Shown here piece after piece: positions 24,231 through 47,392 of a DNA stretch of 64,000 nt. The first letter of the stretch is position 1; the number at the start of each line of letters is the position of its first letter. A program made the position numbers and the translations under genes. Source of the DNA: a virus. The notes beneath the pieces were generated by a model that was not told where the DNA came from, did no database searches, and was given only the letters and a program-made list of their open reading frames with translations. The stretch covers positions 1 through 64,000 of IMG/VR virus record IMGVR_UViG_3300036770_005816, one strand, 5' to 3'.

Positions 24231-24407
24231 ATGGACAAAATCAACTATTTTCGCAAACTCACCACTCGTACATCCGCGGCAAACACTCTGATGGTTTTAT
24301 TCATAGTAGGAACAACGATTGGTGCGGGAATGATAATGCTTCCGGCGGGATTCATAGTCGGTGGGGTCACCTGCGGCGTTTACGGGTTCCTGTTGGGGTC
24401 TGAATAA
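24231..24407 (+). CDS. Small two-span membrane protein
   Basis: 58 residues from the ATG at 24231, preceded by GGCGGA; a GTG 12 bases upstream is an alternative. After a basic N-terminus there are two hydrophobic stretches, about residues 19-36 and 38-56, separated by Pro-Ala-Gly. Its TAA overlaps the portal ATG. The position before the portal gene is unusual for a holin. It could anchor assembly at the membrane or be an antiholin; unknown. Confidence 0.5.
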   Translation: MDKINYFRKLTTRTSAANTLMVLFIVGTTIGAGMIMLPAGFIVGGVTCGVYGFLLGSE

Positions 24408-26611: not shown

Positions 26612-26642
26612 TTTCAGTAAACTGTGTGGCACTTTACTGAAA
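26612..26642. repeat. 10-bp perfect inverted repeat before the protease gene
   Basis: TTTCAGTAAA (26612-26621) and TTTACTGAAA (26633-26642) are perfect complements across an 11-base loop, followed by GTGTTGCATTTTT. It lies directly after the portal/MuF stop. It may be a terminator on the plus strand (short T-run) or an operator for a dimeric repressor. Confidence 0.5.
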
Positions 26643-26687
26643 GTGTTGCATTTTTGAACAGTCAAATAGTTTATTGTGGTAGTACCT

Positions 26688-29198
26688 ATGTCGGACACAA
26701 TAAGCACACAACAGGAAAGCCTCACCGAATATAAGGCGTCCCAAGGTCAGTTCAATATTGATGAAGCACAAGGCATCATCGAAGCATTCGTCGCAGGAAT
26801 CGGAAACAAGGACTCTGTCGGCGACATCATCGTCTCGGGGGCGTTCAACGGAAGCCTAAAGCGACGAAAGCCTCGCGTTGTGTGGGGTCACAACTGGAAC
26901 GAGCCAATCGGAAAAGTCTTGGAAATCTACGAAGTTCCGAGAACCGACCCGCGTCTTCCCGCGAAAATGAAGAATGCGGGAATCGGTGGTTTGTATGCCC
27001 GTGTGCAGTTCAACCTGAAATCGGAGCGCGGGCGTCAGGCTTTCGCCGATGTCGCCTTCTTCGGGGAAGAGCAGGAGTGGTCGATTGGCTACAAGACGCT
27101 TGATGCCGACTTTGACCCATCAAAAAACGCAAATGTGTTGAAGCAAGTTGAGTTGTACGAGGTTTCACCTGTTTTACATGGCGCCAATCAGTTGACTGGA
27201 ACCATCAGCATTAAGGCTGACCAACCGTTGAAAGACCCCAAGGGCGGTTTGACCGCCGCCGGACGGCGCCATTTCAACCGAACAGAAGGTTCAAATCTTA
27301 AACCGGGTGTCAAGGGACGCGCGGACACCCCCGAAAAAATGAGACGCAAGGGTTCGTTCCTGACAAGATTCTTCACGAATCCATCAGGACCGATGAAGGA
27401 CGAAAATGGAAAACCAACCAGATTGGCTTTGTCAGCAGCAGCGTGGGGTGAACCCGTTCCGCAGGACAGGTCAGATGCCGCTGCTCTAGCAGCAAAGGGT
27501 CGTCGCCTTTTGGAAAGATATGAAAACTCCAAAAAGAAAAAGAAGGATGACGCCGACTTCGAAGAACTTCAAAGCAAGGCTTTGGAACAGTACGAAAATG
27601 ACAGCGAAATAAAAGCAGAAGAAAAAATGCATGTCAAGCGGGCGATTCTTGCGTTCGGTCCGAAACCACAAAACCCGATGGCTTTGCAAATGCTTCGCGC
27701 TCGAGCGATGGAGCAGTACAAAAAACGGAAACTCGCAGAACTCATGATGCGGATGATGCAAGAACGGGAACAAGATAACGACGAAGACGACGACGATGGC
27801 ATCCCGGCGAAAAATCCGATGGCTGGTCGCGTGCAAAATCTTGCCTATGCGCTTGCAGAAAAGTTCGGTGGAGCAGTCCGAGTGCGGGAATCAGATGCAA
27901 ACAGCGTAATTTTTGACCATAAAGGAGATGAAGGGAAGCAGACCCTTCGAGTCTCCTATCACTACGAAGACGGAAAGTTCATGTTTGGCGACCCGACAAG
28001 GGTAAAGCCAAAAGTCGTTTACATGAACTTGGACAACGACAATGTCCCCTCCGGCTCCGATGAAGAGCGTCGATACATAGACCGATACAACATGGACGAA
28101 GACCCGCAGATACCCGAAGGTGTTAAGCCGAAGATGCCAGAAAAGGCTGACCCGCTCGGCGGTCTCATCCCTCAGGAAGTAGTAACTGCACGGACAAGAG
28201 GATACGGTCCGCGAAGAGGCAACCTAGAAAGACTTCTTCGCTATTGGCGTCCGATTATGCGAAAGCCCGGTGGGTTCCGTCGTTGTCGAGTGATTCTTGC
28301 CAACCACCCAGAGTTGTATCCGTTGAACAACATCTGCGCGTGGCTGCACCACGAAACAACAGGACTCTGGCCGAACGAGGGTTGCCATCATCCGGGTATG
28401 AAGAATTGCCGAAAAAAACTCAAGGGAATCAAGAACGGTTCCATCTGGAGTGATTCACAGTGGAACGAGCGACTTGCGAGACTTGCCGGCAAGAAAGATG
28501 ACGGCTCGTTCACGATAGACGATGTGATTGACGAATTCGGTGATATGGGCACAGAGGAAAAAAATGCCATGATGATGGAAGAAGTCGCGGAACGCCTCGC
28601 TTTCAAGCCGATGGACGATTACGAAACAGACGACGATGATGACGCCAACGAGAAGGCTTATGGTGCGCTTAGGGACTTCATGAATTCCGAACCAGAGTTC
28701 GTCTCTTACATGACTGGTGACGACAATTGGGTCATGGAGGGCGAGGATGAAGACGGGATTACGGTCGAGTCTCCGCTTAAGGGTTCTGGTGGCGGTGGCT
28801 GTGGATGCGGTGGCTCCTGTGGCGGTGGTGGCAAAGAAATGATTGCTGCCTTGGCGGCTGCACTGGCGGACATGGTCAAGGAATTGGAAGACGATGTGGA
28901 TGTCAAGGCTGGTCGGGTGCTCAACGGTCGAAATATGAAGCGCCTAAAAGAGGCGTATCAACTTCTGCAAGATGTCTTGATGTCTGGCGGCGCTGAGGAT
29001 ATGGAGAGCAAATCTCACCTAATCCAAGCCGAAAACACAAGTGTTTACAATCTGAAACAGGCTCTTGACCCCGTCTTCGATTACCACGGAATTGAGGCAG
29101 TTGCGAACGAGGACGGCGTTCTCATCCGTGACATCGCATCGATTTCGGATGAAGCAGCGGAGGCATTGGTTATTCGACTAAAATCATTAGAAGTCTGA
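26688..29198 (+). CDS. Prohead protease with long C-terminal extension
   Basis: 836 residues from the ATG at 26688. Residues 1 to about 185 are an HK97-type (S78) prohead protease: W-G-H-N-W with His68 and W-S-I-G-Y-K with Ser132, followed by V-E-L-Y-E-V-S-P-V-L-H-G. The remaining 650 residues are far beyond the family's usual 200 or so. They include a Lys/Glu helical region, a F-R-R-C...N-N-I-C-A-W-L-H-H-E-T-T-G region with H-H-P-G-M-K-N-C, and a Gly/Cys-rich run near residue 705. The extension may act as scaffold or carry a second activity; it could be cut off by the protease itself. Confidence 0.82.
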   Translation: MSDTISTQQESLTEYKASQGQFNIDEAQGIIEAFVAGIGNKDSVGDIIVSGAFNGSLKRRKPRVVWGHNWNEPIGKVLEIYEVPRTDPRLPAKMKNAGIGGLYARVQFNLKSERGRQAFADVAFFGEEQEWSIGYKTLDADFDPSKNANVLKQVELYEVSPVLHGANQLTGTISIKADQPLKDPKGGLTAAGRRHFNRTEGSNLKPGVKGRADTPEKMRRKGSFLTRFFTNPSGPMKDENGKPTRLALSAAAWGEPVPQDRSDAAALAAKGRRLLERYENSKKKKKDDADFEELQSKALEQYENDSEIKAEEKMHVKRAILAFGPKPQNPMALQMLRARAMEQYKKRKLAELMMRMMQEREQDNDEDDDDGIPAKNPMAGRVQNLAYALAEKFGGAVRVRESDANSVIFDHKGDEGKQTLRVSYHYEDGKFMFGDPTRVKPKVVYMNLDNDNVPSGSDEERRYIDRYNMDEDPQIPEGVKPKMPEKADPLGGLIPQEVVTARTRGYGPRRGNLERLLRYWRPIMRKPGGFRRCRVILANHPELYPLNNICAWLHHETTGLWPNEGCHHPGMKNCRKKLKGIKNGSIWSDSQWNERLARLAGKKDDGSFTIDDVIDEFGDMGTEEKNAMMMEEVAERLAFKPMDDYETDDDDDANEKAYGALRDFMNSEPEFVSYMTGDDNWVMEGEDEDGITVESPLKGSGGGGCGCGGSCGGGGKEMIAALAAALADMVKELEDDVDVKAGRVLNGRNMKRLKEAYQLLQDVLMSGGAEDMESKSHLIQAENTSVYNLKQALDPVFDYHGIEAVANEDGVLIRDIASISDEAAEALVIRLKSLEV

Positions 29199-31063: not shown

Positions 31064-33562
31064 ATGAGTTCGTCTCTCATGTTTGACGCAAACAGACGGG
31101 TAGAGAACTACCGCAAATCGGTAGCGTTCGTTGACGAAAATGTTTTGATGTTCAAGGGTTTCCTTGGACCTTCGTTAAAGGACAAACCTGAACTTGTTAC
31201 GGTTGGTGCGAGGGCTGCCCGTGCTGCTGGTGTGATTGTAGACAGCCTCGGCAAACTGCGATGCCCTCCCGGTACGCCTAACGCAAACCAATTCACAGAC
31301 ATGCAGATGTCGAACTGCATGGTGCCGGGGATGGGAACAGCCAAAAAACTTAAAGACCGTGCAGCCAACGCGATGGGAACACTTCTTAGCACAGCGGGCA
31401 AAGCGATGGATAAAAAAGGCGTCAAGGGTGCGATGCGGGTAGCCGCGATGGCAAGTTTGGCGAGTTTGGATGTGCTTGATTACAAACAAAATGATGGAAG
31501 TGGGGCGATGTCTGCGACCATTCTGGCGATGGGCGACATAGTTCGTTCTGCCGGACGAGAAGTAGCAGAAAGAGCATTGGACAGGTTGCAACGCAATGGA
31601 AAAATCTCACAAGAACAACGCGAACAACTTGACAAAGTTGTAGACAAACTTGCTCCGATAGCCGCCGAAAGACTTGTCTTGGGCGGTGTTCAAGCGGTCA
31701 ATGCGTGGAGACGAGCACGAAAACAGCGGACACCAACAACCGAAACAGCGGATGCGCTTGAACCAAGGCAACCGAAACTGAAACAACCGAGACACCTTAT
31801 TGAACCAAACGCAATGGGTTCAGTAGATGTTTCTCAGGTTTTGCCAAGCGCACCAGAAAAATCTATGCGCACCGAGAACAATATGCCAATCACTGTTGAT
31901 GCGGAAAGATTCAATGGGGAACTCGCACAAAAAGTTTCGTCCCTGTTGGACAAATATGGAATAGACAAATCTTTACCTCCAAGTCAGCAGTTGGATGGGC
32001 TAGCCAAAAAAATGGGAGTTGTGCTTCCTCGTTCGATGTCAAAACAATTGGACGATTCGGTGGAATACCTGCTCGGTGAAGGCAAGACGGTCGCAGACGG
32101 TTTTGTTCAAGGGATAAACAATCCAGACCCATTGGCTGTGGACGTTCTTAGGGTCAAAGGGCAAAGCATCCTTGATGCAGTCAAGTTGGCGGAGTCAGGT
32201 CCTGAAGGAAGAGCACAAGTGAGGGAAGCAATCGCGCAGGGCTACTTGGAGACGATAACCGGCGTGGAGATGATGTTCACGGATAATCCCGCCATGAGGG
32301 GTGCGCTCATGCTTGATTTGCACGGAGATGAATACTCCAAGAAATTCCCAGCAATGAAAGAGGCGGCTGGATATGCGTACCAAACCTACACCCCGAATGG
32401 GATGATGACTCAGGTCAATTTCCTGCCGCATTCATTGATGTTTGACCAAGATGCAATCCAAGGAATTGTTCCAAAAGGTCAAGGGCTGAATCACAGCGTA
32501 AGATTTTCTGGTGCAGACGACCATCAAATAGGTTTGGGTATACACGAAGCGGCGCACGCGGAGCACTTCTACCACCAATACGCAGCGTTGGGCATAAAAA
32601 TCGGGCAAGACTCAGGAACGATAGAACAACAGGTAAGAGCAAAAGGACCGCGACTTGAAGATTCGTATATTGGGGTTATGTTCGCCCACAGATACGAATT
32701 CTCGTCAGAAATGACATGGGACGAAGTGGTGGAACAGTTGGATAAGGCGGGTAGCAATGAGTCGCTTGATTCGTTGATGGCTGTTGTCGCCCAAGATGCG
32801 ACGAGAATCAACATGAAGACTGGCACCCCTGCAGATGATGCAAAGACGGGATATTTGTACTCTCACTTCGGAGGCGCGAACGGAATACAATCAGGTAAGC
32901 AAACTGTCTCCGTGATTGAGGCAGTTGAGAATTACACGAGGGCACAGCAATTCCCCAACATTGTTCCATTTTTGCCGAGGGACGAACAAGGAAACCAAAT
33001 CCCCATTCAACGATTGACTCAAGCGCAGACCGACGAAGTGTACGAAAAAGCCAAAGCAGCCGTCAAACTTGAATTGCCCGAAAATATTGAACTTGTCGAC
33101 CCGAATACGGGTGAGGTTCTTTCTGACGAAGGTGCCGCGAAGATGGTGAAAGATGCCATGAACGGACAATTCATTTCAGGGCTTGCCCAAGAATATGTTG
33201 GAGTTAGAAACGACTATCTCGGTATCAGGGAATCCACCATTTCGACAAATGGAGTACCCAACGAAGAAGTTATGGCTGCGCTTGGCGTCTCTTCTGACTA
33301 CGGCAAAACGAACATCATGGAAGCGACAGCAGAAGGTAGAGTCGTTGATGTATACGGACGCAATTTCACGAGTTTCAACATGGAGCAAGAGCAAGTAACG
33401 AAAGTTCGGGAAATGTTAGGGCGTCTTTTCCCCAAGAGTTACGACGACAGACCCTCAGGTAAACCACCGTCTGCGGCTGTTCTCCAACAAAAAATACAGC
33501 AAATCACATCACGAATGCCCACAATCAGAAGAAAAGAAGGAAGCGTAGATTCCGTCGTATGA
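31064..33562 (+). CDS. Tagged metallopeptidase-like protein (RCP motif plus HExxH)
   Basis: 832 residues. The 20-residue cysteine motif (R-C-P-P-G-T...F-T-D...C) spans residues 66-85, the same tag as in the proteins starting at 33887, 35227 and 40435. A helical Ala-rich segment (about 95-215) follows, then a linker. Residues 494-504 read H-E-A-A-H-A-E-H-F-Y-H, an HExxH zinc-peptidase motif whose H-A-E-H extension also occurs in the 791-residue protein at the right end. A third zinc ligand cannot be chosen with confidence. It may be a virion-borne or maturation protease. Confidence 0.6.
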   Translation: MSSSLMFDANRRVENYRKSVAFVDENVLMFKGFLGPSLKDKPELVTVGARAARAAGVIVDSLGKLRCPPGTPNANQFTDMQMSNCMVPGMGTAKKLKDRAANAMGTLLSTAGKAMDKKGVKGAMRVAAMASLASLDVLDYKQNDGSGAMSATILAMGDIVRSAGREVAERALDRLQRNGKISQEQREQLDKVVDKLAPIAAERLVLGGVQAVNAWRRARKQRTPTTETADALEPRQPKLKQPRHLIEPNAMGSVDVSQVLPSAPEKSMRTENNMPITVDAERFNGELAQKVSSLLDKYGIDKSLPPSQQLDGLAKKMGVVLPRSMSKQLDDSVEYLLGEGKTVADGFVQGINNPDPLAVDVLRVKGQSILDAVKLAESGPEGRAQVREAIAQGYLETITGVEMMFTDNPAMRGALMLDLHGDEYSKKFPAMKEAAGYAYQTYTPNGMMTQVNFLPHSLMFDQDAIQGIVPKGQGLNHSVRFSGADDHQIGLGIHEAAHAEHFYHQYAALGIKIGQDSGTIEQQVRAKGPRLEDSYIGVMFAHRYEFSSEMTWDEVVEQLDKAGSNESLDSLMAVVAQDATRINMKTGTPADDAKTGYLYSHFGGANGIQSGKQTVSVIEAVENYTRAQQFPNIVPFLPRDEQGNQIPIQRLTQAQTDEVYEKAKAAVKLELPENIELVDPNTGEVLSDEGAAKMVKDAMNGQFISGLAQEYVGVRNDYLGIRESTISTNGVPNEEVMAALGVSSDYGKTNIMEATAEGRVVDVYGRNFTSFNMEQEQVTKVREMLGRLFPKSYDDRPSGKPPSAAVLQQKIQQITSRMPTIRRKEGSVDSVV

Positions 33563-33845: not shown

Positions 33846-33886
33846 CAAATAGCCAGCCAGTGTGGCTTATCACGGCGAGGGTACGG

Positions 33887-35230
33887 ATGCAAAACGGCTT
33901 AAATTCATCAATTGCGCAACTTCTCCGCAAACAGGTACGTCTTTCGCGCGGTCACAAAAGCATGCGCAGAACCGTGTTGCCGATAGAACGAGAATACAAC
34001 ATCAAATTTTCGGAAATTGAACAAACCAATTCGTTTGACGAATCCGACATCTATAACGCGCCATTGAACGGCGACAGAAACCTAATCAATTTCAAAACAA
34101 TGATGTACCTAAGGAAACTGGAGTCGCGACTCGCTTCACCCATTGACATACTCGCATACGACGAAAAGGTCGGGTTGGTCGGTTCAAGAACAGGGTTCGG
34201 CAGAACACTTCAAGCAGTCGGTTCCGCAATCACGCCGGGCAACATCAGCACGATACGAAGCCCTGTCCGTTCTGCTATTTGGCGGGCTTTGACACCGGGC
34301 GGTGGCGGAGGAAGAGGGCGAAAACTTCCCGGCGAGCGTGGATACAGGTGCCCTGCTGGTTTTGAATTCGGTGGTCGTTTTACCGACAGTGCATTTTCTA
34401 CATGTGGCGCTCAGTTGTTTGAGATACCAGGTCCGCTCGCGTTGGCTGCTCGCGCCATCCGCGGAGCGATGAACCCTCCGTCGGCAAGGCTTGAAAGCCT
34501 CTCGCAGGTGGTTCAAGGCAACGCGTCGCCTGATAGGGCTGTGCAAATTCAGCGAATGGCTCAGATTCCTCGCGACAACATACCCAATAAACAAAAGTTT
34601 GCACAATCAGTCGCATCATCAATAACAACATTGAAGGCGTCCCCACAGGGTGATGCCCGAATGATTCGCAGGGATGGAACAATTTTCCGACCAATCGTTC
34701 CTTCCTCAATCCTTAGACAATTCAGCGGAAACAAAGACATGATGGACGGCGCATTTGTCCGAGCGGTACAAGTGCCGAAAGATATCGCACCTGACGATGT
34801 CGCCCTGCTTGCCGGCGCATCAATGCAAAGAATTTCATTTGTTGCACCAAACGGTGTGGTAATTTCGATTGAGCGACCACGCGCACTGACGGTAGGTGAA
34901 CGACGGAAGTTCGGTCGCCAACTGAACAAAGTGATAGGTGAAACAGACCAATATGAAGTTGGTAAAAACATCAAAGATTTTGCCGAAAGAAGTAACGGTG
35001 CGTTCAAGTACACAGAAACATATGGCGATGTGAAAAACCCGAACGAGTTAGTGACAGTGATTGGCAAAGATGGCGTTGAACGACAGGTGCGTCGATGGAT
35101 TTACGAAACCTTCATAAAGGCTGGCGAAGAAGCACGGACACCCAAACAGCAGGGCGCGAAGCGACGCCAAGTGGCGGAGGCTGGACGAGAAGCGGCTGAG
35201 CGTCTAGCGGAAAGTTCATCAAGAAGATGA
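33887..35230 (+). CDS. Tagged protein with RCP motif, unknown core
   Basis: 447 residues from the ATG at 33887, where a GAGGG lies upstream; an in-frame GTG 27 bases earlier is possible. The cysteine tag R-C-P-A-G-F-E-F-G-G-R-F-T-D...C is at about residues 154-173 and is preceded by a Gly-rich linker. The C-terminal 250 residues contain a beta-rich part with R-I-S-F-V-A-P-N-G-V-V-I-S and an Arg-rich helical tail. No catalytic motif is recognised. It shares the tag with the two kinase-like giants next door and overlaps the first of them by ATGA. Confidence 0.55.
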   Translation: MQNGLNSSIAQLLRKQVRLSRGHKSMRRTVLPIEREYNIKFSEIEQTNSFDESDIYNAPLNGDRNLINFKTMMYLRKLESRLASPIDILAYDEKVGLVGSRTGFGRTLQAVGSAITPGNISTIRSPVRSAIWRALTPGGGGGRGRKLPGERGYRCPAGFEFGGRFTDSAFSTCGAQLFEIPGPLALAARAIRGAMNPPSARLESLSQVVQGNASPDRAVQIQRMAQIPRDNIPNKQKFAQSVASSITTLKASPQGDARMIRRDGTIFRPIVPSSILRQFSGNKDMMDGAFVRAVQVPKDIAPDDVALLAGASMQRISFVAPNGVVISIERPRALTVGERRKFGRQLNKVIGETDQYEVGKNIKDFAERSNGAFKYTETYGDVKNPNELVTVIGKDGVERQVRRWIYETFIKAGEEARTPKQQGAKRRQVAEAGREAAERLAESSSRR

Positions 35231-38200
35231 AGAAAGTATTTTTCGTTCGTCGTGACGGCGGAAAGCCGTACATGCTTGTCACCGTTCAACCGGGTGGGAC
35301 GGAATTCCAACCCATTTCCGATGATGCCGACGATGTATCTGATGTTCTTGAAAGTGTGTTCAAAAACAAGCCGATAACCAAACGACAACTCGACGATGCA
35401 CTAGACCAAGATTTCGCCATTGAGGGACCTGTTGCCGTAACTCGTGACACAAACAAAAAAATCAAGGAGTTCGCGAACACCGATGTGCCTTCTTTGAAGA
35501 GCATGGATTTTTCTGCAATCAAAATCAGCGATTTGGGTGTATCGAACACTAAAGATTTGGTGAACTTTAAGGCTCGCTCGTTCTTGTATGACCAAACAAA
35601 AACAACCTTCAATTATGAAGTGAAACGGGTTCGCGCAATCTGGGACCCAAGTTTGTCTATTCCGGGGACGGGTCGCCGTGGCGGTTGGAGATGTCCTGTA
35701 GGCACTAGATATGGTGGACAAATCACCGACAGATTTGGCAGAAATTGTGGTTGGGGTGTCGCGCGAAGAATAGCCAACGCAATCACAAACATCGGTGAAC
35801 GACTAGAAAGTGTTGACGATAGGCGCAGGGGGCGCAGAGCCGAACAAAGAAATCAGCGAGTTATGCGACGCCTCCAAAGAGATGCTCGTGGTGGAGCAGC
35901 CGAGCGAGGTTTGAGGGCTGTTGCGGATGTTCTTGACGGCGAAGATACGGCATCGCCAACGCCAGAAGCACCAGCAGCAAGAACACCGAAAGCGCCTGCG
36001 AAGCCACGCGGTCGGAGAAGAGTGTTCGATAGTGACGTTCGGGATGCGGGTTTACGCGACTCGGAATTGAGAAGAGTGCGTCGGGAAATCGAAGAACCTG
36101 GCGCTCCTCGAACAGGTGTAATCGACTTGGACGACACGATTGAACTTCCCGCTGGAGAGAGTACACCCGACAGCCGTTCTTTCCGTAATGTCAACAATAG
36201 ATTCCCGAAGAATGGTCTGCCCGACGAAGCGTATTGGCGTAGGGACAGTTACACGGGTGACGACAAAGCGGAACTCGAAAGGCGTTTTGGAAGATACTAC
36301 GACGATAAAAACAAGATTAACCAAAGAGGGAAGTTTGTAAATCAGCGTCTAGATGATTTCCGTAAGCGTCAAGCGGCTCCCAAGAAGAAACCAGAACCAC
36401 GAAAACAGCCTCGCGGTAAGCGCAAGCCGAGCCAGCGACCGAAAGGTGTTGTCGAAGGTCCGCTGGACGGTGAATCTTTCAATGACTATGTCGACCGAAA
36501 ATACGATGAGTACAAAAATCGTGTAGAGAAGATACAACGAGATGGTGGTCGTGCTGGTTTGTTGACGAAGAAAGAGTGGTTTGATGTTAACCAAGGGAAT
36601 TTGCGTAGTGCTTGGGATAAGAAAAATCCCGACAAGAAGCGACGCGAACCGCGCAAAAAGCCAGCAGGAAGAGCAAAACCACCTGTAGCAGACAAAGAGC
36701 CGACACCTAAGCGACCCCGAAAAATCAGCAAGAAAGATGTTTTCGATAACAGCATCCAAGCGGTTTCCTATGAGGGCGCCGCAAAGAAAATTGATGACCT
36801 TCCAGATAACTGGCTCGGGGACGGACCGAATCGTTTTGCCAATGCCGAAGGAATGAGGGACAGCCTGCGTAGACTCGCAGCGCGTCTCGCCAAATACGAC
36901 AAAGACGACCGAGTTGAACTTGAAAACGGGGAAGATATTCGTGTAGAGGATTTGGCGAAGAATGTGCTCGATGCTGCTGACGCTTGGGATAGGTTCGCAA
37001 AGCGTGCCGGGAACGATGATGATGAGAGGGCGCGTCGTGCGGAGGTAGCCGACATTTTGGAGAATCAGCGCGCCAACAATAGACCAGCACAACCTGATAC
37101 ACGGGAACGAATTGAACAACTGATTGACGAAGAAGCAGAGATTGAACGACAGTTGGAGCGTAACAATCTCGCGAACTTTGGTGCCGACGCCAAAGATTGG
37201 ACAGAAGCACACGACGGCATGATGAAACAAATCGGTTTGCGCAACGACGAAGTCCGCAACGAAGACGACCAAGCATTTAAAGATAATTGGAATGCAGAAG
37301 ATGCAGAACAAAGAAACCAATTTGAAGAAGAGATGGCGCAGTTGGACATGGGCAACATGGACGCCGCCGAACTAGAAGAGCGAATAAACCTCCGAGATGA
37401 ACAAATTAAACAAGCGCTTGAACAACTAGAAAAAGATTTGAAACTAGTTGAAAAGTTAAGAAAACCCCAAAATCCAGAAGAGTTTGCTGAACGCAAGAGA
37501 GCGTTTGAGCGCATTGCAGCCAACGAACGACGCGTAAACCTGAATAAGCAATTCAACAAAGAAAACAGAGGCATTCTCGAAGGGATGCGTGACAATGGTG
37601 GGACGACTCAGTCTCCACCACGAGGTGCGAAGAAACCCAAGAATTCTGACATTAAACGGGTAGTCAAGTTTGAGGAAATAGACGAAAACGAAGGCATCAG
37701 TGTCGGTGACGCAATAGCCCATATCGGATTTAGAGACGAGGACGACAGAGTTATCGATGCACTTGCAGAGAAGTTCGGAATTCCCACACGAGACACTCAA
37801 CGACAAAGAGAATCTAATGTCGGGCGAGTCAATATGGCTGATGTTGGAGAAGCAATTCGTGAGCGGATTGAGCGAAACAAGAAAGAACGATGGAACCCAA
37901 ACGAGAAAAAAGAATTTGCAGAAAAACTAGCCGACCAAGATGATGATGTTTTGGACAGAACCGAAGAGGACGCTGACCGCGCCGTGGACCAGGCTGCAGA
38001 CAAAGTTCGTACAGCGTTGGAAGATTTGGCACGAATCAGAAGAAAAATCAAAGAACGTAAAGGCTCACTCAAGAGACTAAAGAAAGAAGATAAACAAGAC
38101 TTGCAGAGAGAGGCTGACCGTCTCATAGTGTGGAACGCAATTCTTCTCGAAAAGCGCGCCCGTTTGAAGATGGTGCAAGACGAACTTCAAAAGCGACAGG

Positions 38201-40086
38201 GTCGTGGAGGTGTGGCAGAAAACGACGCTAAAGCATTTGACGATGTTGTCAAAGAAGTTAACGGGATGGTGAGTCGAACCGATGACAAACTTAGTGATTC
38301 GCAAGTTGCGGAACTGAAAAACATTTTCGAAGAATATCGAAATCAAGCAGGACCGATTAAAAGAAATGTCGATGCTCGCATAGAGTTCGACAGACTAGTT
38401 AATGAAGGTCAAATAGACCCACAAATCGACGAGTTGATTCAAGGTAGGCGCGACAAATTGGATGAAGCGCAAAGAAAGCGTAACGTCGCTAGACAAAACA
38501 TGGATAGGGGTCTTGGCAACGGAAAAGTTTCAGAGAAGATGGATGAAATCCGCGAATATGTTAAGGCGCAAAGAAATGTCCGTCAGATTGAAGAAGAATT
38601 AGACAGGTTCGAGAAGCGCAAAAATGTCATAAAACAGCAGAAGAAGCGAATTCCGTCGGATTACAAACTGTTTGTTGATGAAGGTGGAATGGAACTGAAT
38701 GATGTTACAAGCGAAATGTTGCGCGGTGGCGCGGACAGGGGAGCGGTCGAGCAGGATTGGTTTAGGAAACAAGTCGAAGACGGCATCGCCAAACAAGTCC
38801 TAGATGAAGGAAACGATTTCGAAGGAGGCGCCGTTTATCGACTCCCGAACGGTTCGTATGTTTTCATTTCCGATAAGCAGCGAACACGAATGCGACAGAT
38901 GGAGGAGAGAGAACGACTTCCCAAAAATCAAAGAGCAGAGCGAATAATCATAATCGACAAAAAATATGCCCCCGACAGACCAGCGAACGCACGACCACAA
39001 ATGCAGAAAGCGTTGGGGACAGAAGACCGAGGTCCTGTCGGCAACGCATTCCCACGACGCAGAAATGAAATGGGCGAATTCGGCATCAAATTCTCCGAAA
39101 AAGGAATCGGAGAGTATGTTCCCGTCAACAACCCTGAGATACGCACAAAAGAAGATGCAATCAAATGGGTCGCGAATGGGGAATCACTCGATGAAGTTCC
39201 GCACGAGTTTTGGCACGACGCAATTGAAGCGAACTCAAGCACAGCGAAACGCGATAAATCTAAGCGATTTAGGCAACTTGCTAGAAACGGTGGAGCAGTT
39301 GGGGATACGCGAATATACGTCCTCCGCGATAAAAGCGGTTATGGAACGAATCATGGCATCGTTCTCAAAGCGGCACAACCCGGAGACAATATTGGCGAGG
39401 TGGTTGGGTGGAATTATCTAGACCGCCTGGGCATCATTGATGGCGGCGCCGTATATGACGGCGAATCAGAAGGAGGTCAGCGGTATGTCATGTTTAACTT
39501 CGCGTTCAAAGACATTCCAGAAGGAAATGAAATTGACATGAGAGAAGGCGTCGAAAACTTCGCTGTTGGCGATGCAGAAGCAGACCCGTACCAGGCTCTT
39601 CCGGGACGTGTCACCCATTGGCTTGCAAACTATATGCTTGGCGTTTCGGATAGACATCCATGGAACGGATTCCTCAAAAGGGTTAAAAATGATGGACAAG
39701 ACAAGGTTCATATAGTCCCAATTGATTTGGGCTGGGCGGGTCGCGCTGTTCTCGACGACCCAATCCAATTTGTCGAATTTGGGTATCTTGGACTCGACAG
39801 CGGAATTCTTGACGACATGCAACGTCTATATGCTTCCGCTACGCCAGAAAATAAACAACGAATACTTCGCGACCTGACAAGAGCCGTGGACAATGTGATT
39901 GAAAAAACTGAAAACATGCTCGATGTCGATTTGGATGTCTTTGTTGCTCAGGCTATAAAAAACGTGCCCGAGAAAGAACGAAGAAGCGCGCAAAATAAGT
40001 CTGAGAGACTATACAACCAGATGAAAGGTCTCTTGGATACCCTAAAGCGTAGACGTCAAGCAATTATCGACAAGGTGACAAGGTAG
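35227..40086 (+). CDS. Giant tagged protein with PI3/PI4-kinase-like C-terminus
   Basis: 1619 residues, the largest in the window. An N-terminal module (about 1-75) is shared with the protein from 44559. The cysteine tag lies at 155-174. A conserved block follows near 315-380 (S-R-S-F-R-N-V-N-N-R-F-P-K-N-G-L), then a charged, coiled-coil body to about 1200. The C-terminal domain has a candidate ATP lysine (V-L-K, Lys1381), a catalytic loop S-D-R-H-P-W-N at 1474-1480, and a metal-binding I-D-L-G with Asp1500. The loop and the residues before it fit the PI3/PI4-kinase signature in full. Lipid or protein kinase activity is inferred. It is paralogous to the 40435 protein. Confidence 0.7.
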   Translation: MKKVFFVRRDGGKPYMLVTVQPGGTEFQPISDDADDVSDVLESVFKNKPITKRQLDDALDQDFAIEGPVAVTRDTNKKIKEFANTDVPSLKSMDFSAIKISDLGVSNTKDLVNFKARSFLYDQTKTTFNYEVKRVRAIWDPSLSIPGTGRRGGWRCPVGTRYGGQITDRFGRNCGWGVARRIANAITNIGERLESVDDRRRGRRAEQRNQRVMRRLQRDARGGAAERGLRAVADVLDGEDTASPTPEAPAARTPKAPAKPRGRRRVFDSDVRDAGLRDSELRRVRREIEEPGAPRTGVIDLDDTIELPAGESTPDSRSFRNVNNRFPKNGLPDEAYWRRDSYTGDDKAELERRFGRYYDDKNKINQRGKFVNQRLDDFRKRQAAPKKKPEPRKQPRGKRKPSQRPKGVVEGPLDGESFNDYVDRKYDEYKNRVEKIQRDGGRAGLLTKKEWFDVNQGNLRSAWDKKNPDKKRREPRKKPAGRAKPPVADKEPTPKRPRKISKKDVFDNSIQAVSYEGAAKKIDDLPDNWLGDGPNRFANAEGMRDSLRRLAARLAKYDKDDRVELENGEDIRVEDLAKNVLDAADAWDRFAKRAGNDDDERARRAEVADILENQRANNRPAQPDTRERIEQLIDEEAEIERQLERNNLANFGADAKDWTEAHDGMMKQIGLRNDEVRNEDDQAFKDNWNAEDAEQRNQFEEEMAQLDMGNMDAAELEERINLRDEQIKQALEQLEKDLKLVEKLRKPQNPEEFAERKRAFERIAANERRVNLNKQFNKENRGILEGMRDNGGTTQSPPRGAKKPKNSDIKRVVKFEEIDENEGISVGDAIAHIGFRDEDDRVIDALAEKFGIPTRDTQRQRESNVGRVNMADVGEAIRERIERNKKERWNPNEKKEFAEKLADQDDDVLDRTEEDADRAVDQAADKVRTALEDLARIRRKIKERKGSLKRLKKEDKQDLQREADRLIVWNAILLEKRARLKMVQDELQKRQGRGGVAENDAKAFDDVVKEVNGMVSRTDDKLSDSQVAELKNIFEEYRNQAGPIKRNVDARIEFDRLVNEGQIDPQIDELIQGRRDKLDEAQRKRNVARQNMDRGLGNGKVSEKMDEIREYVKAQRNVRQIEEELDRFEKRKNVIKQQKKRIPSDYKLFVDEGGMELNDVTSEMLRGGADRGAVEQDWFRKQVEDGIAKQVLDEGNDFEGGAVYRLPNGSYVFISDKQRTRMRQMEERERLPKNQRAERIIIIDKKYAPDRPANARPQMQKALGTEDRGPVGNAFPRRRNEMGEFGIKFSEKGIGEYVPVNNPEIRTKEDAIKWVANGESLDEVPHEFWHDAIEANSSTAKRDKSKRFRQLARNGGAVGDTRIYVLRDKSGYGTNHGIVLKAAQPGDNIGEVVGWNYLDRLGIIDGGAVYDGESEGGQRYVMFNFAFKDIPEGNEIDMREGVENFAVGDAEADPYQALPGRVTHWLANYMLGVSDRHPWNGFLKRVKNDGQDKVHIVPIDLGWAGRAVLDDPIQFVEFGYLGLDSGILDDMQRLYASATPENKQRILRDLTRAVDNVIEKTENMLDVDLDVFVAQAIKNVPEKERRSAQNKSERLYNQMKGLLDTLKRRRQAIIDKVTR

Positions 40087-40091
40087 CGGTT

Positions 40092-40445
40092 ATGGCTGAT
40101 TTTGCAAAAATAGTTTTAGACAATGATTACTTCTATTCATTCAAAGATGAACCAGATACATGCATCGCCAAAAATGATAACGGGAACATAGAGTTGCGGG
40201 GCAATAACAAAAAAATTGTGGACTTTGTTTATGATGTTTTGTCTGAGTCTGCAGGCAAATCGACATATTCAAACTCGAAATATGGTTTAGAATATGTGTT
40301 GTCAAAATTGGTCGGTCCGTCAATTGACTACAGTTCCGATTTCTCATTTATTGAAGAGGATTATGAGGAACTTGCCGAAAAACTCAAAGTGACCAAATCT
40401 TTCAAAGTTATATCTACAAAGAAACAAATGAGCGATGACGAATAA
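40092..40445 (+). CDS. Small hypothetical protein between the kinase-like giants
   Basis: 117 residues, acidic, with an I-E-L-R-G-N-N-K-K-I-V-D-F-V-Y strand-helix and no recognised motif. It begins 5 bases after the first giant and its last 11 bases overlap the start of the second. Conserved spacing between paralogous giants suggests a dedicated partner, for example a chaperone, but nothing in the sequence proves it. Confidence 0.5.
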   Translation: MADFAKIVLDNDYFYSFKDEPDTCIAKNDNGNIELRGNNKKIVDFVYDVLSESAGKSTYSNSKYGLEYVLSKLVGPSIDYSSDFSFIEEDYEELAEKLKVTKSFKVISTKKQMSDDE

Positions 40446-43400
40446 GAATCTCATCAACTATAAAGCGCAACGCTTCCAAAGTGAACTGAATAAAACCACG
40501 TTCGCTTATGAAGTGAAGCGTGTTCGCGCGTTGTGGGACCCGACACTTTCAATACCTGGGACGGGTAGACGTGGCGGTTGGAGATGTCCTGTTGGTACGC
40601 GGTACGGAGGTCAGATAACCGACCGTTTTGGAAGAAACTGTGGGTGGGGCGTTGCTCGCCGTATTGCAAACTCCATCACGAACATTGGTGAAAGATTGGA
40701 AAGCCTCGACGACAGGCGTAGGGGCAGACGAGTAGATAGACGAAACAGGCGTATGGCTGGACGGCTTCAGCGGAACGCGGAAGCAGGTCGGGCAGAGCGC
40801 CGTTTGCGCGGTGTCGCCGATGTCCTGGATGGCGGAGAAGGAACCGACCGAGTAGCACGACCGCCACGAGGGAGAGAAGTTGTCCTTGATGATGTGGACG
40901 CTCCAGAGACTTCCCCTGTTGTCTTAGATGATGGTGGGAGACCGCTAGACGGAAGAGCCGAAAGACGAGAGGCGCGTAAGCGCAGAAGGCAAGAACGACG
41001 CGAGCGACGACTCCGTGAAGCGCAGGAAAGAGAAGAGAGAGGTGACCCACCTGCAGGTCAACTTGGTCGCGGCTGGCGAGGCGTTCTTTCGGAAGGCAAT
41101 CGAAGATACAACGAACAAGGAAATCGTCCTTGGTGGGGTGAGGGTCAACCTGCACCGCGCCCTGATGCTGATTCGGTTGATGTTCCGAGCAGACCAGACA
41201 GAGGTGACGCAGATGCGGAAACACCGCGTCCTCGTCGCCCGCGACCAGAAGGAGAACGCGGACGACGCAGACCGCGAGCAGAGCGAGACGAAGCAGACAT
41301 AGTTGAACCGACTCCAGAAACACCTGATGCATCAGAACCGACACCAGAGGCTCCGAGACCGCCACGGAGACCACGAGCACCGCGAGATGGGGAGGAAAGA
41401 CGACCACGCCCAGGCGAGCGGAGACCTCCACGCGTACCGGCTGCCGACGAAGAAGACGAAGGACTGTTTGACGATTTCCTTAGACCCGGCGCACCGAAGC
41501 GTGACGGCAGAGAACCTGGGGAGATTGTTATCGGTAGCGACGGAGAACCCTATAAATGGGTACCGAACCCCGATGCGAACGTTATTGGTGCAGGAAAACA
41601 AGAAAAGGGTTTTTGGGTTCCCGCATCTGAAGTCGATTTAGAAAATGACCGCCTGAGAAAGAAAGAGCGAAGAGTAAAAGGCGACGATTTACGCAACCCG
41701 AAATCACCAAAAGGTGCACCAGACCCAGAAGGCAAGAACCGTATTTGGACGGACGATGAGGGCGACCAATGGGAGTACGACCCGAACAGCAGACAGTGGA
41801 ACATCAGAGGCAATCCGAGTAAGCGCCGTGAGGCTGAAGAAAACGACAGAGCAAGGCGAGACAATAGGAATGAGCGGTTGCGTGAAAGAAACGAGCGTGG
41901 GAGACGCAGGGCGCCACGCGATGAAGATGAGCGAGACAGAGATTTGCGTTTTTCTGAACGCCGACGTGTACGAAGAGAAATAGAAGAACCCGGCGCACCA
42001 CGAACAGCGCCCGGGGAAACACCAGAAGCGGAAGCACCAAAGCCCAAGAGACCTGCTCGCAAGAGGAACCGTAGACGTGCCGCTTCTGATGAAATCGCAA
42101 CTGAGTCAGCGACTCGACGACCACCAACTCCGAAAGACAAGCCACAAGGCGGACAACCTAAGCCGTCAGAGCGAATCAACCTTGATGAGGAAATGATTGA
42201 ACTTGCGGAAGGCGAGAGTATGCCCGATTCGCGTTCATTCCGAAATGTGAATAACCGTTTCCCGAAGAACGGTCTCCCGAAGAGCGCATATTGGCGTAAA
42301 CCAGATTACGACGGTAATGACAAACCAGAACTTGAACGACGTTTTGGCAGATACTACGATGCGGACGGGAATATCAATAACCGTGGTCGTTTGGTTAATC
42401 AAGAAATTGAAAAACGTAAACGTGGGGGTGGTCTCACACCGAAAGGTCGCAAGCCTCGCCAACGCAAAAAGCCGGCTGATGCACCGAAGCAACCCGTGGA
42501 GAACACTCCACCGAATCAGGCTGATATCCCATCGCCACCGTCATTGGCGGTCACCGAGGAAGCATCAACTGCATTCAGAGAACTTCCGGACGACGCCAAG
42601 ACAAAAGCGCGACAACTTTTCCGTGTGCTTATGCGAGGCAGAGACAGGGAAAATGAAGTTCAAGATGATGTCGTCGATAATGCGATTCGTCGTCCACCTG
42701 GCGATGTAAACAATCAGAATCTTAGAGCACTGCTTGCCGCTCAGCAACAAAATATACAAAGAATAACAAAAGACAAATCTGACGCAACAGCAAACATTGA
42801 GCGGTTGAAACAGGATTACGGGTTGGATAGTCCAACGGGTTTGCGATACGACATTCTTCCTGATGATGTCAAAGACCGCTATGTAGACAATGTTGCCGTC
42901 GTCATGCGCGCAGATAAAGAACTGGCGAGCAATCAAAGACGAATCGCAAGATTGCAAGAAGAAATTATCAGGCGAGATATCGCGAACCCTCCAGTAAACC
43001 AGCCGCAGACTCCGCAGGCTGGACAGACCCCTTCGCCAACGCCGCAATCTCCGCAGCCTCAAGGTCGAAGAAAACTCGCTGACAGATTCATGTTTGTAAA
43101 GCGACGCAAGAATCGTGACAATGTGGTTGCCCCACTCGGTGACGTCGACAAAAATGGAGTCGTTGTTGGCAAGACGGTGAAAGTTGGCGAAAACGGCATG
43201 AACACCAAAGATGAAGCCGTTAAATATTTGCAAGATGGTGGTGAAATAGGAAACGTTCCAGACGAATTCCTGTTTGATGCACTTGAGGGAGTGTCGCATG
43301 ACGGTTCACAGGATTGGGGAGATTTCGTAACCGAAGATGTGTTCAACGACTTGGTTACTAGGGGTGTGATTAACGCGGATGGAATCGACTACGACGCATT

Positions 43401-44238
43401 CCGCCGAAAGAAGTATCATCACTTCTTGTTTGCGCAGGCTCTCTCTGCTTCCGACATGGAAATACCCGAGGAACTCAGAGACAAACTTAAAGGGAAAAAG
43501 TTCGTTCGACTAAGGAGCGGAAGTGCGGCAGCACCTTGGTTGCATTTCCGTGTTTCGGATGACGGGAAACGCCTCACCGGTGAGGGTTTCGTTATCAAGC
43601 CACCAGATGGCTATAACGGCGACGAATCCAACATGTTTGAACTTATGGGCGCCGAATTGTCCGCAATGCTAGGAGCACCAGGCGAAGGTGGTCGTGTTGA
43701 CGGACTCAAAAACGGAAGTAGAACCATTGTTATTCCTTTCGGTGGAAACATGATTGAAGGGAAAATGGTTGTCGGCGTCTATAATCACAAAGGCAATAAA
43801 AAAGACAGACTATTGAATGTCTTGTCGAATTTTGTTCTCAATGTTGGCGACAGACATGGGTTTAATGGAATGGTGTTTAAAGATGAAAACGGGAACGATG
43901 TCGCATATCCGATTGATTTTGGTCGAGCAAGCCCTGGGCGAACTGTGACCGAGGACGGGTTGCGCAATTATTGGGAGACTTTCGATATGGATAGAAAAGC
44001 GGGAATGGGCGCGCGCGATATTGGAGCAGCGAACGAGTTGGGAAGAGAACTTCTTCCCAGACTTAAGGCTATTGATTTTGAAGAAATGGCACGACGATTT
44101 GGCGCAATGTATGGTGACAAACAGGCTCTAAGCGCTGCACAGGTTGCGGAGAGAATTGACCAAATCAGGAAACGGGTCAACGCCATTATTCGCATCCTTG
44201 AGACACGAGGGCTTGGCGATGTTCTGTTTCAGCGTTAA
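40435..44238 (+). CDS. Second tagged giant with PI3/PI4-kinase-like C-terminus
   Basis: 1267 residues. The cysteine tag is at 50-69 and is identical in its 20 residues to that of the 1619-residue protein. An Arg-rich, Pro-rich disordered region (about 90-560) follows, then the shared S-R-S-F-R-N-V-N-N-R-F block (about 600-650). The C-terminal domain has V-I-K (Lys1055), the catalytic loop G-D-R-H-G-F-N at 1138-1144 and I-D-F-G with Asp1161, which is the active-site layout of PI3/PI4-type kinases. It lacks the N-terminal module of its paralogue. Third positions have diverged while the tag protein sequence has not, implying selection. Confidence 0.7.
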   Translation: MTNKNLINYKAQRFQSELNKTTFAYEVKRVRALWDPTLSIPGTGRRGGWRCPVGTRYGGQITDRFGRNCGWGVARRIANSITNIGERLESLDDRRRGRRVDRRNRRMAGRLQRNAEAGRAERRLRGVADVLDGGEGTDRVARPPRGREVVLDDVDAPETSPVVLDDGGRPLDGRAERREARKRRRQERRERRLREAQEREERGDPPAGQLGRGWRGVLSEGNRRYNEQGNRPWWGEGQPAPRPDADSVDVPSRPDRGDADAETPRPRRPRPEGERGRRRPRAERDEADIVEPTPETPDASEPTPEAPRPPRRPRAPRDGEERRPRPGERRPPRVPAADEEDEGLFDDFLRPGAPKRDGREPGEIVIGSDGEPYKWVPNPDANVIGAGKQEKGFWVPASEVDLENDRLRKKERRVKGDDLRNPKSPKGAPDPEGKNRIWTDDEGDQWEYDPNSRQWNIRGNPSKRREAEENDRARRDNRNERLRERNERGRRRAPRDEDERDRDLRFSERRRVRREIEEPGAPRTAPGETPEAEAPKPKRPARKRNRRRAASDEIATESATRRPPTPKDKPQGGQPKPSERINLDEEMIELAEGESMPDSRSFRNVNNRFPKNGLPKSAYWRKPDYDGNDKPELERRFGRYYDADGNINNRGRLVNQEIEKRKRGGGLTPKGRKPRQRKKPADAPKQPVENTPPNQADIPSPPSLAVTEEASTAFRELPDDAKTKARQLFRVLMRGRDRENEVQDDVVDNAIRRPPGDVNNQNLRALLAAQQQNIQRITKDKSDATANIERLKQDYGLDSPTGLRYDILPDDVKDRYVDNVAVVMRADKELASNQRRIARLQEEIIRRDIANPPVNQPQTPQAGQTPSPTPQSPQPQGRRKLADRFMFVKRRKNRDNVVAPLGDVDKNGVVVGKTVKVGENGMNTKDEAVKYLQDGGEIGNVPDEFLFDALEGVSHDGSQDWGDFVTEDVFNDLVTRGVINADGIDYDAFRRKKYHHFLFAQALSASDMEIPEELRDKLKGKKFVRLRSGSAAAPWLHFRVSDDGKRLTGEGFVIKPPDGYNGDESNMFELMGAELSAMLGAPGEGGRVDGLKNGSRTIVIPFGGNMIEGKMVVGVYNHKGNKKDRLLNVLSNFVLNVGDRHGFNGMVFKDENGNDVAYPIDFGRASPGRTVTEDGLRNYWETFDMDRKAGMGARDIGAANELGRELLPRLKAIDFEEMARRFGAMYGDKQALSAAQVAERIDQIRKRVNAIIRILETRGLGDVLFQR

Positions 44239-44265: not shown

Positions 44266-44562
44266 ATGAAAAAAACCATGTGGGTCGGTATGGTCGGGAT
44301 GGGGAACTCTGTTGTTGTGGGTTTCGACGGAGAAAAGGTGAGGTGCGCATCAACCTCGCCAGAGTTCGAAGAGTATGTTTTGAACAATGTCAATTCTGAA
44401 CGAGTTTCGGAATTGGCGCAAAAAGATAAAGATTTCAATTATCCGCTTTATGTTGGGACATCAACCATGATGTCCTTCGGGGAGGAAGTTCCTTGGGATG
44501 AAGAGGGTTTCAAAATGTTGTCAGAAATCGCTCGCGCCTTAAGGGAAAAACAGCAAAAGTGA
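44266..44562 (+). CDS. Small hypothetical protein
   Basis: 98 residues with a G-M-V-G-M-G-N-S-V-V-V-G-F-D-G strand pair, then acidic helices. No family recognised. A TAGAGT hexamer ends six bases before its ATG, which would permit leaderless initiation, but no -35 is evident. Its stop overlaps the GTG of the next gene. It may partner the large protein it precedes or follows. Confidence 0.45.
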   Translation: MKKTMWVGMVGMGNSVVVGFDGEKVRCASTSPEFEEYVLNNVNSERVSELAQKDKDFNYPLYVGTSTMMSFGEEVPWDEEGFKMLSEIARALREKQQK

Positions 44563-46075: not shown

Positions 46076-47392
46076 ATGTCAGACGACATTCGTCTTCGCG
46101 AGTTGCAGAACGCACTTCGCGAAAAGATGGCTGACAACAAGACCATTGCCGACTCGTTCAAAGTCGAAGATGGCACTGTTGTTGTTTCAGCCGAACAAAA
46201 GTCAGCGTTCGACCGCAATATGTCGGACATCCGTGAAATCAAGAGCCTGATTGAGGGCATTGAGGGAATGCGCGATGCAGAGAAGTGGGCTTCGGCTCCT
46301 GCCTCTGAGTCGGTTGCGCAGGCTTCGAATGCACAGCCTCAGCAGGTCGAGCAGAGAATGAGCATCAAGAGCCTCGGCGAAGCGTTCCTTTCGTCCGATG
46401 AGTACAAGGCGCTCGCCTCTGGTCGAAACGGCGCGAACATGCCGGCTCCGTTCGTGTACAACGTGAAGGATGTCTTCACGGGTATGCCGACCGGTCCTGC
46501 TTCGCCGCTTTCCTCGGTTGAACAGTTCGGTCAGTTCCAGCGTGACCCGATGGTGGTCTCGCCGACCCGTACCCGTCGCGTCCGCGACCTCTTCCCGAAG
46601 CGCACCACGAACGCTGCGGTGATTGAGTACTTCCGCCAGATTGGTTACACCGCCGTCACTGGCGCGCCGACCAACAATGCGGCTCCTGTCTCTGAGCGCT
46701 CGGGTTCGCCCGCAGTGTTCACTGCGAAGCCACAGTCTGGTTTGAAGTTCACTGGTCATCAGGCACCGGTTCGCACGCTTGCCCACTGGGAAGCAGCGCA
46801 CCGCAATGTGCTCGCCGACGAGCCGCAACTCCGTAGCATCATCGACAACGAGTTGATGTACGGTCTGCGTCTTCTTGAGGACGAGCAAATCCTGAACGGT
46901 GACGGCACCGGCGAGAACCTCGAAGGTGTTCTCCAGACCACGGGCATCCAGACCTACGATTGGTCTTCTGGTGCGACGGGTGACCTCAAGGCGGACGCGA
47001 TTCGTCGCGCAGCCACCTTGTCGTTCCTCGCGTACTACGAGCCGACGGGCGTCGTGATGCACCCGAACGACTGGGAAGACATCGAACTGTCGAAGGACGA
47101 CAACGGACAGTACCTGGTTGCTGTCTCGGTCGCCCTCGGCGGAACCCCGCGTCTGTGGCGCATCCCGGTTGTGGACACGCCGGCAATCGCAGAAGGCACC
47201 GCTCTTGTCGGTGCGTTCGGCACTGCCGCGCAGATTTACGACCGTGAGCAGGCAAGCATCCGAATCAGCGAGCAGCACGCAGACTTCTTCGTGCGCAACG
47301 CGATTGTGGTGCTCGCCGAGCAGCGTCTCGCACTCGCTGTCAAGCGTCCTGAGGCATTCGTTGCCGTCTCGTTTGACAACGCTCCTGCCTGA
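46076..47392 (+). CDS. Major capsid protein (HK97 fold)
   Basis: 438 residues. The first 100 or so form a charged helical delta region that the prohead protease would remove. The remainder has the HK97 pattern: an N-arm with P-T-R-T-R-R-V-R-D-L-F-P, an E-loop region with T-A-K-P-Q-S-G-L-K-F, the spine helix (H-R-N-V-L-A-D-E-P-Q-L-R-S-I-I-D-N-E-L), G-T-G-E-N-L-E-G-V-L and the late V-V-M-H-P-N-D-W-E-D-I and P-V-V-D-T-P strands. Codon use is more biased and GC-rich than that of its neighbours, typical of a highly expressed gene. It has its own promoter and terminator. Confidence 0.93.
   Translation: MSDDIRLRELQNALREKMADNKTIADSFKVEDGTVVVSAEQKSAFDRNMSDIREIKSLIEGIEGMRDAEKWASAPASESVAQASNAQPQQVEQRMSIKSLGEAFLSSDEYKALASGRNGANMPAPFVYNVKDVFTGMPTGPASPLSSVEQFGQFQRDPMVVSPTRTRRVRDLFPKRTTNAAVIEYFRQIGYTAVTGAPTNNAAPVSERSGSPAVFTAKPQSGLKFTGHQAPVRTLAHWEAAHRNVLADEPQLRSIIDNELMYGLRLLEDEQILNGDGTGENLEGVLQTTGIQTYDWSSGATGDLKADAIRRAATLSFLAYYEPTGVVMHPNDWEDIELSKDDNGQYLVAVSVALGGTPRLWRIPVVDTPAIAEGTALVGAFGTAAQIYDREQASIRISEQHADFFVRNAIVVLAEQRLALAVKRPEAFVAVSFDNAPA

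What the first reader, a model, noticed from the sequence alone, without database searches (positions are those of the whole stretch)
35227..44238. PI3/PI4-kinase-like active sites at the ends of two giant phage proteins
The 1619-residue protein has S-D-R-H-P-W-N (1474-1480) and I-D-L-G (Asp1500); the 1267-residue protein has G-D-R-H-G-F-N (1138-1144) and I-D-F-G (Asp1161), with candidate lysines 1381 and 1055. Residues before the first loop fit, position by position, the PI3/4-kinase signature pattern as I remember it. Such kinases are rare in phages and the fusion to a tagged giant structural protein seems unusual.
Basis: partly seen in the sequence, partly recalled or inferred. Interest (0 to 1): 0.85.

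Follow-up and report, generated by a model that had tools for sequence, protein, structure and literature searches.

The report
Phage head proteins carrying exchangeable kinases
Two giant proteins in this phage's capsid gene cluster end in real, complete kinase domains of the PI3K/HipA type, each followed by a small partner gene that changes family when the kinase does, which suggests that the phage loads switchable protein-modifying weapons into its particle, each with its own antidote.

Summary
The domain is a genuine bilobed kinase (AlphaFold pLDDT 88 and 84). Its nearest solved folds are CtkA, HipA, HipT, PI4KIIα and PI3K. Across 42 homologues the only invariant residues are Lys, Glu, DRHxxN and Asp. 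"PI3/PI4 kinase" is too specific: the Pfam cut-off is missed and HipA-type protein kinases are at least as close. The fusion is not a curiosity. In related viral contigs, 39 of 49 loci carry one or two such tagged kinases between portal/protease and major capsid genes. In same-slot proteins with 79–95% identical N-termini, kinase and partner change together. Tagged proteins without an active kinase lack it. A distant phage has the kinase fused to the head protein MuF. Best reading (0.6): head-packaged, injected polymorphic kinase effectors with cognate immunity/antitoxin partners. Packaging, activity and neutralisation are inferred, untested.

The parts
35227..40086 (+). P1, 1619-aa tagged head-cluster protein: N-terminal FVxRRDGGKPY module, CPxGT tag, long charged linker, C-terminal class 2 kinase
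35692..35748 (+). P1 tag CPVGTRYGGQITDRFGRNC (aa 156-174), shared by P1, P2 and homologues in 49 viral loci
39049..40083 (+). P1 C-terminal kinase domain (aa 1275-1619), AlphaFold pLDDT 87.6, pTM 0.89
39367..39369 (+). P1 Lys1381, invariant beta3 lysine
39397..39399 (+). P1 Glu1391, invariant alpha-C glutamate
39649..39666 (+). P1 catalytic loop DRHPWN (aa 1475-1480)
39721..39732 (+). P1 IDLG (Asp1500), DFG-like metal-binding aspartate
40092..40445 (+). 117-aa partner gene of the class 2 kinase, 5 nt after P1; predicted immunity/antitoxin or chaperone
40435..44238 (+). P2, 1267-aa tagged head-cluster protein with C-terminal class 1 kinase
40585..40641 (+). P2 tag CPVGTRYGGQITDRFGRNC (aa 51-69)
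43099..44235 (+). P2 C-terminal kinase domain (aa 889-1267), AlphaFold pLDDT 84.1, pTM 0.87
43597..43599 (+). P2 Lys1055, invariant beta3 lysine
43639..43641 (+). P2 Glu1069, invariant alpha-C glutamate
43849..43866 (+). P2 catalytic loop DRHGFN (aa 1139-1144)
43912..43923 (+). P2 IDFG (Asp1161)
44266..44562 (+). 98-aa partner gene of the class 1 kinase, 27 nt after P2; predicted immunity/antitoxin or chaperone
33860..35230 (+). 456-aa tagged protein (tag variant CPAGFEFGGRFTDSAFSTC) without a kinase and without a partner gene; some homologues end in a degenerate kinase domain
31064..33562 (+). 832-aa protein with tag-like CPPGTPNANQFTDMQMSNC and a HEAAHAEHF zinc-peptidase-like motif
24407..29198 (+). 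portal protein (with Mu-F domain) and prohead protease: head-gene context
46076..47392 (+). HK97-type major capsid protein: head-gene context

Best explanation
P1 and P2 are effectors of the phage head. Their N-terminal parts (CPxGT tag and long charged linker) target them to the prohead, and their C-terminal domains are active PI3K/HipA-superfamily kinases, most likely Ser/Thr protein kinases. They are packaged, enter the next host with the DNA and phosphorylate host targets there. Each kinase is followed by its own small cognate gene; I propose that its product holds the kinase inactive in the producing cell (immunity/antitoxin) and is left behind at packaging. The kinase plus partner behaves as an exchangeable cassette on a conserved tagged N-terminus. 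SHOWN computationally: the kinase fold, the complete catalytic residues, purifying selection, the head-cluster location, kinase-class-specific partners, joint swapping, and a MuF fusion in another phage. INFERRED: packaging, injection, kinase activity, protein rather than lipid substrate, and neutralisation by the partner.
For: Fold: AF2 models match CtkA, HipA, HipT, PI4KIIalpha and PI3K. Residues: only K, E, DRHxxN and D are invariant in 42 homologues. PF00454 matches 33/42 at E<=0.1 (best 8.5e-9) and HipA_2 15/42. Kinase domains of close pairs have dN/dS 0.03-0.47. Context: order portal > protease > tagged proteins > MCP in the loci that span these genes. Partners: 42/42 kinases have an 82-117-aa ORF at -38 to +44 nt, and a leave-out HMM assigns 42/42 to the right kinase class; nearest-neighbour partner 40/42 against tag region 18/42, chance 0.21. 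Partners are under purifying selection, dN/dS about 0.03-0.18 in unsaturated pairs. Swaps: same-slot pairs with 79-95% identical N-termini have kinases 24-28% and partners 14-31% identical; window P2 against L005 P2 is 90% N-terminal, 23% kinase, 24% partner. Natural control: tagged proteins without an active kinase (p456, pseudokinase forms) are followed directly by the next tagged gene. An independent lineage (L087) has MuF fused to PI3_PI4_kinase, over the Pfam cut-off (42.4 bits), between portal and MCP with a 94-aa downstream ORF. Precedent for MuF toxins with small downstream immunity ORFs: PMC5576092, PMC11699363.
Against: No experiment shows packaging, injection, kinase activity or toxicity. 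Foldseek E-values are modest (6e-5 to 8e-5) with low TM-scores (0.3-0.46). The window proteins miss the Pfam cut-off. Partners match no known immunity or antitoxin family. MuF toxins are described as nearly confined to temperate phages, whereas no integrase or resolvase was found on this contig, though it may be a fragment. The third tagged protein of relatives could not be identified.
Confidence: 0.6

Rival explanations
1. The kinases act in the producing cell, phosphorylating capsid or host proteins during assembly or excluding superinfecting phages, and the small partner is a chaperone or regulator.
For: Genes lie in the late head cluster. The authors of PMC8008677 proposed superinfection immunity for the Gratiaviridae HipA-like kinase between portal and MCP. 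A partner that tracks the kinase fits a chaperone as well as an antitoxin.
Against: Does not explain fusion of the kinase to a shared tag and giant linker, the MuF fusion in another lineage, or repeated wholesale swapping of kinase classes, which fits conflict better than housekeeping.
Confidence: 0.22
2. The domains are lipid (phosphatidylinositol-type) or small-molecule kinases rather than protein kinases.
For: PF00454 is the best Pfam hit; PI4KIIalpha and PI3K are among the fold matches. From general knowledge, actinobacteria contain phosphatidylinositol, and the MCP's nearest cultured relatives infect actinobacteria.
Against: CtkA, HipA and HipT, which are protein kinases, rank as high or higher; some classes match HipA_2; the best PDB sequence match is a Fam20-type protein. 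Host unknown.
Confidence: 0.12
3. Catalytically dead, kinase-derived structural domains that only scaffold the head.
For: A degenerate kinase domain does exist on the paralogous p456 protein in seven loci.
Against: All catalytic residues are invariant in 42 domains; the degenerate paralogues lose them and also lack a partner gene.
Confidence: 0.04
4. The motifs are chance matches in low-complexity giant proteins.
For: Linkers are highly repetitive and charged; DRHxxN alone appears in 0.5% of P1 shuffles.
Against: 0 of 20,000 shuffles had the combined motif in both proteins; confident bilobed models; conservation in dozens of viral contigs.
Confidence: 0.01

Closest known systems
MuF polymorphic toxins of phages (PMC5576092; Bxa and Apk2, PMC11699363)
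   Same: Encoded in the head region; conserved N-terminal capsid-targeting part, variable C-terminal enzyme, small downstream immunity ORF
   Different: No MuF domain in P1/P2 (a different CPxGT tag); PI3K/HipA-like kinase warheads are not among those reported in the papers read; two or three tagged genes in series; no integrase found
HipA-like kinase of Gratiaviridae gut phages (PMC8008677)
   Same: HipA-superfamily kinase encoded between portal and major capsid genes of a tailed phage
   Different: No tag, giant fusion, class swapping or partner genes reported there; different phage group; the authors proposed superinfection immunity
HipBST toxin-antitoxin (PMC10627512, PMC9325769)
   Same: HipA-like kinase controlled by a separate protein with a fold related to part of HipA; HipT of Legionella is among the fold matches of P2
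   Different: Chromosomal tripartite module with antitoxin upstream; partners here are downstream, fall into several families without detected mutual similarity and match no solved structure
Polyvalent proteins (PMC5512222) and T4 Alt
   Same: Large phage proteins with effector domains thought to be co-injected with DNA; kinases, peptidases and GNATs are among their domains
   Different: Polyvalent-protein kinases are described as a distinct truncated Ser/Thr/Tyr-kinase group, not PI3K/HipA-like; Alt is an ADP-ribosyltransferase
PI3/PI4 kinases (PF00454) and CtkA
   Same: DRHxxN loop, DxG, beta3 Lys, bilobed fold
   Different: Window domains miss the Pfam cut-off; only part of the PF00454 profile aligns; fused to a phage head-cluster protein

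Membership tests
PI3/PI4 kinase (PF00454) | Pfam gathering score reached | tested here: not met
   15.3 and 13.3 bits against 27.1; only the distant MuF-kinase in L087 passes (42.4 bits)
PI3/PI4 kinase (PF00454) | Catalytic Lys, DRHxxN loop and DxG Asp | tested here: met
   Invariant in 42 homologues
PI3/PI4 kinase (PF00454) | PS00916 signature (pattern recalled from memory) | tested here: inconclusive
   P1 matches, P2 does not
PI3/PI4 kinase (PF00454) | Phosphoinositide substrate | not testable with these tools
   Needs biochemistry
HipA-type kinase | HipA-like fold | tested here: met
   Foldseek: HipA, HipT and CtkA among the best matches
HipA-type kinase | HipA-family Pfam model over cut-off | tested here: not met
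   Window domains do not match it; HipA_2 matches 15/42 homologues, best 1.3e-5; the member read in full scored 24.8 against 27 bits
HipA-type kinase | Adjacent HipB-like DNA-binding antitoxin | tested here: not met
   Adjacent small genes match no Pfam family
MuF polymorphic toxin | N-terminal MuF domain on the effector | tested here: not met
   No MuF match in P1/P2; MuF is on the portal protein and on the L087 kinase
[quoted passage not shown]
   42/42
Polymorphic toxin-like effectors | Conserved N-terminus with exchangeable C-terminal domain and cognate partner | tested here: met
Polymorphic toxin-like effectors | Toxicity relieved by the cognate partner | not testable with these tools
   Needs expression assays
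Virion-injected effector (T4 Alt-like) | Present in the capsid and injected | not testable with these tools
   Only head-cluster position and the MuF fusion in another lineage speak for it

The most novel reading that the evidence does not exclude
A non-MuF, tag-directed capsid delivery system in which possibly virulent phages carry two or three exchangeable effector-plus-antidote cassettes per genome, using PI3K/HipA-like kinases of several classes, each neutralised by its own unrelated small protein.
Probability: 0.5. Interest if true: 0.85.

Novelty: new variant of a known kind. Interest (0 to 1): 0.72.

Why it matters
It would add HipA/PI3K-like kinases to the known warheads of phage heads, show a capsid-targeting tag other than MuF, and give a testable set of kinase-inhibitor pairs. 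Cassettes swapped on one N-terminus allow tag, kinase and antidote functions to be tested separately.

Tried and rejected
Gordonia phage Upyo gp24 hit: no DRHxxN in the protein, rejected. PDB sequence searches with single domains gave nothing useful. GNAT identity for the third tagged protein: suggested by eye (GIATIYN...VWAKVGF) but Pfam and PDB profiles found nothing, so not claimed. Tag in cultured phages or GTDB genomes: none. Kinase search in GTDB genomes gave only distant hits in a Dependentiae and a cyanobacterial MAG. Common ancestry of the partner families: profile comparisons of the pairs tested gave probabilities of 3-5%. A partner hit to a surface-layer protein covers 25 residues, no stretch passes on its own, and it was taken as chance. 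Cantare gp11 at the equivalent locus has no kinase. Integrase, resolvase and one sheath family: none on this contig.

Full report
OBSERVATION. The recalled PS00916 pattern fits P1 fully but P2 fails at two positions. In 20,000 composition shuffles no pair showed the combined motif in both proteins, while DRHxxN alone occurs in 0.5% of P1 shuffles. The two C-terminal domains are homologous. PF00454 is the top Pfam hit for both, below its cut-off.

RELATIVES. The contig is a 133,214-base virus record. A near-identical contig (L002/L003) and one 59%-identical relative (L005) were found with the domains themselves. A search with the N-terminal tag brought in 49 viral loci. Forty-two non-identical tagged kinase domains were extracted (a few are still close relatives of each other). 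They fall into three groups, or six at a stricter threshold, of which I treat the two class 1 subgroups as one: 0a, 0b, 0c, 1 and 2. P1 is class 2 and P2 is class 1. In their alignment the only invariant columns are K, E, D-R-H-N and D. Selection used only DRHxxN, so K, E and the last D are independent support. Thirty-three of 42 match PF00454 at E<=0.1 (best 8.5e-9) and 15 match HipA_2. PHROG 3162, function unknown, matches 20 of them.

FOLD. AlphaFold2 models on the family alignment are confident (pLDDT 87.6 and 84.1; pTM 0.89 and 0.87). Foldseek against the PDB returns CtkA then PI3K for P1, and HipA, CtkA, PI4KIIalpha, PI3K and HipT for P2. E-values are modest and TM-scores low, so superfamily membership is well supported and closer membership is not. 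The nearest viral structures are uncultured-phage proteins, one already named PI3/4-kinase catalytic domain containing protein. A sequence profile finds Fam20-type, PI3Kalpha and PI4KA chains.

CONTEXT. The window gene order is portal (with MuF domain), prohead protease, 518-aa protein, 832-aa protein, 456-aa tagged protein, P1, small gene, P2, small gene, 450-aa protein, HK97-type capsid protein. The same order recurs in the related loci as far as they extend, with one or two tagged kinases in 39 of 49 and often a third tagged protein of unknown type. The nearest cultured capsid proteins are from Brevibacterium phage Cantare and Gordonia phages at 45-49% identity; the host of this phage is unknown.

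PARTNER GENES. Every one of the 42 kinase genes is followed at -38 to +44 nt by an ORF of 82-117 aa. HMMs built without the test sequence and without anything more than 60% identical to it assign all 42 to the class of the neighbouring kinase. Nearest-neighbour partners agree with kinase class in 40/42, against 18/42 for the tag region of the same proteins and 21% by chance. Partner families show no mutual similarity in the three pairs of profiles compared and match nothing informative in Pfam or the PDB. They are under purifying selection. Distant kinases outside the clade also have a following ORF: 94, 110, 136 and 229 aa. The third tagged proteins have their own partner family of mostly 74-106 aa. 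The tagged p456 proteins, including forms with a degenerate kinase domain (DRSPAT in place of DRHxxN; hhalign E 1.3e-11 to the active family), are followed directly by the next tagged gene.

CASSETTE SWAPPING. At the second slot of closely related phages, proteins whose N-terminal 250 aa are 79-95% identical carry kinases of different classes (24-28% identical) with different partners (14-31%). The window shows the same: P2 and its L005 counterpart are 90% identical at the N-terminus but have class 1 and class 0a kinases (23%) with different partners (24%), whereas P1 and its counterpart keep class 2 and the same partner family (69%).

INDEPENDENT LINEAGE. L087 and two further contigs encode a 595-aa protein with an N-terminal MuF-type head domain and a C-terminal PI3_PI4_kinase domain above the Pfam cut-off, between portal and capsid genes. 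Other distant viral contigs end ORFs of more than 2,100 residues with the same kinase.

INTERPRETATION. Head-gene location, a shared tag, a swappable enzyme, a class-matched small partner and absence of the partner where no active kinase is present are the hallmarks reported for MuF toxins and their immunity proteins (PMC5576092, PMC11699363). A kinase of the HipA superfamily held by a separate antitoxin protein also has a precedent (HipBST, PMC10627512, PMC9325769). I therefore favour virion-borne kinase effectors with cognate antidotes. A chaperone role for the partner and action in the producing cell remain open. Gratiaviridae HipA-like kinases between portal and capsid genes (PMC8008677) are the nearest published relatives by position; their authors proposed superinfection immunity. 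The literature library holds only open-licence papers, so prior description elsewhere cannot be excluded.

LIMITS. Packaging, injection, enzymatic activity, substrate and neutralisation are untested. Some of the 49 loci are near-duplicates and many are fragments. Co-inheritance alone could explain part of the partner-class match, but not the swapped cases.

Noticed in passing
window 31064-33562: 832-aa protein with a tag-like CPPGTPNANQFTDMQMSNC and HEAAHAEHF, a zinc-peptidase-like motif; Brevibacterium phage Cantare gp11 at the equivalent locus carries HEIGHSIGSW. Possibly another packaged effector.
   Followed up: partly
L014:12887-16003, L024:7646-11128 and others: Third tagged protein in many relatives, absent from the window, with a conserved unidentified C-terminal domain (GNAT-like by eye only) and its own ~85-aa partner family.
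   Followed up: partly
L025, L049, L051-L055 (p456 homologues): Degenerate kinase domain (DRSPAT replaces DRHxxN in most, no DxG) on the p456 tagged protein: a pseudokinase paralogue without a partner gene in the three checked.
   Followed up: partly
window 44559-45911 and 35227-35430: The 450-aa protein before the capsid gene shares the N-terminal FVVRKRDG module with P1 and holds three DUF3721 repeats.
   Followed up: no
L094:1-7452: Dependentiae MAG with five tandem genes carrying DRHxxN kinase-like domains.
   Followed up: no
L092:1-6969 and L083:1-6471: ORFs of more than 2,100 residues in other viral contigs that end in the same kinase; in L092 beside a portal/protease-like ORF.
   Followed up: partly
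window 51271-53202 and 56432-57274: B12-dependent (class II) ribonucleotide reductase and a TauD-like dioxygenase in the same phage.
   Followed up: no
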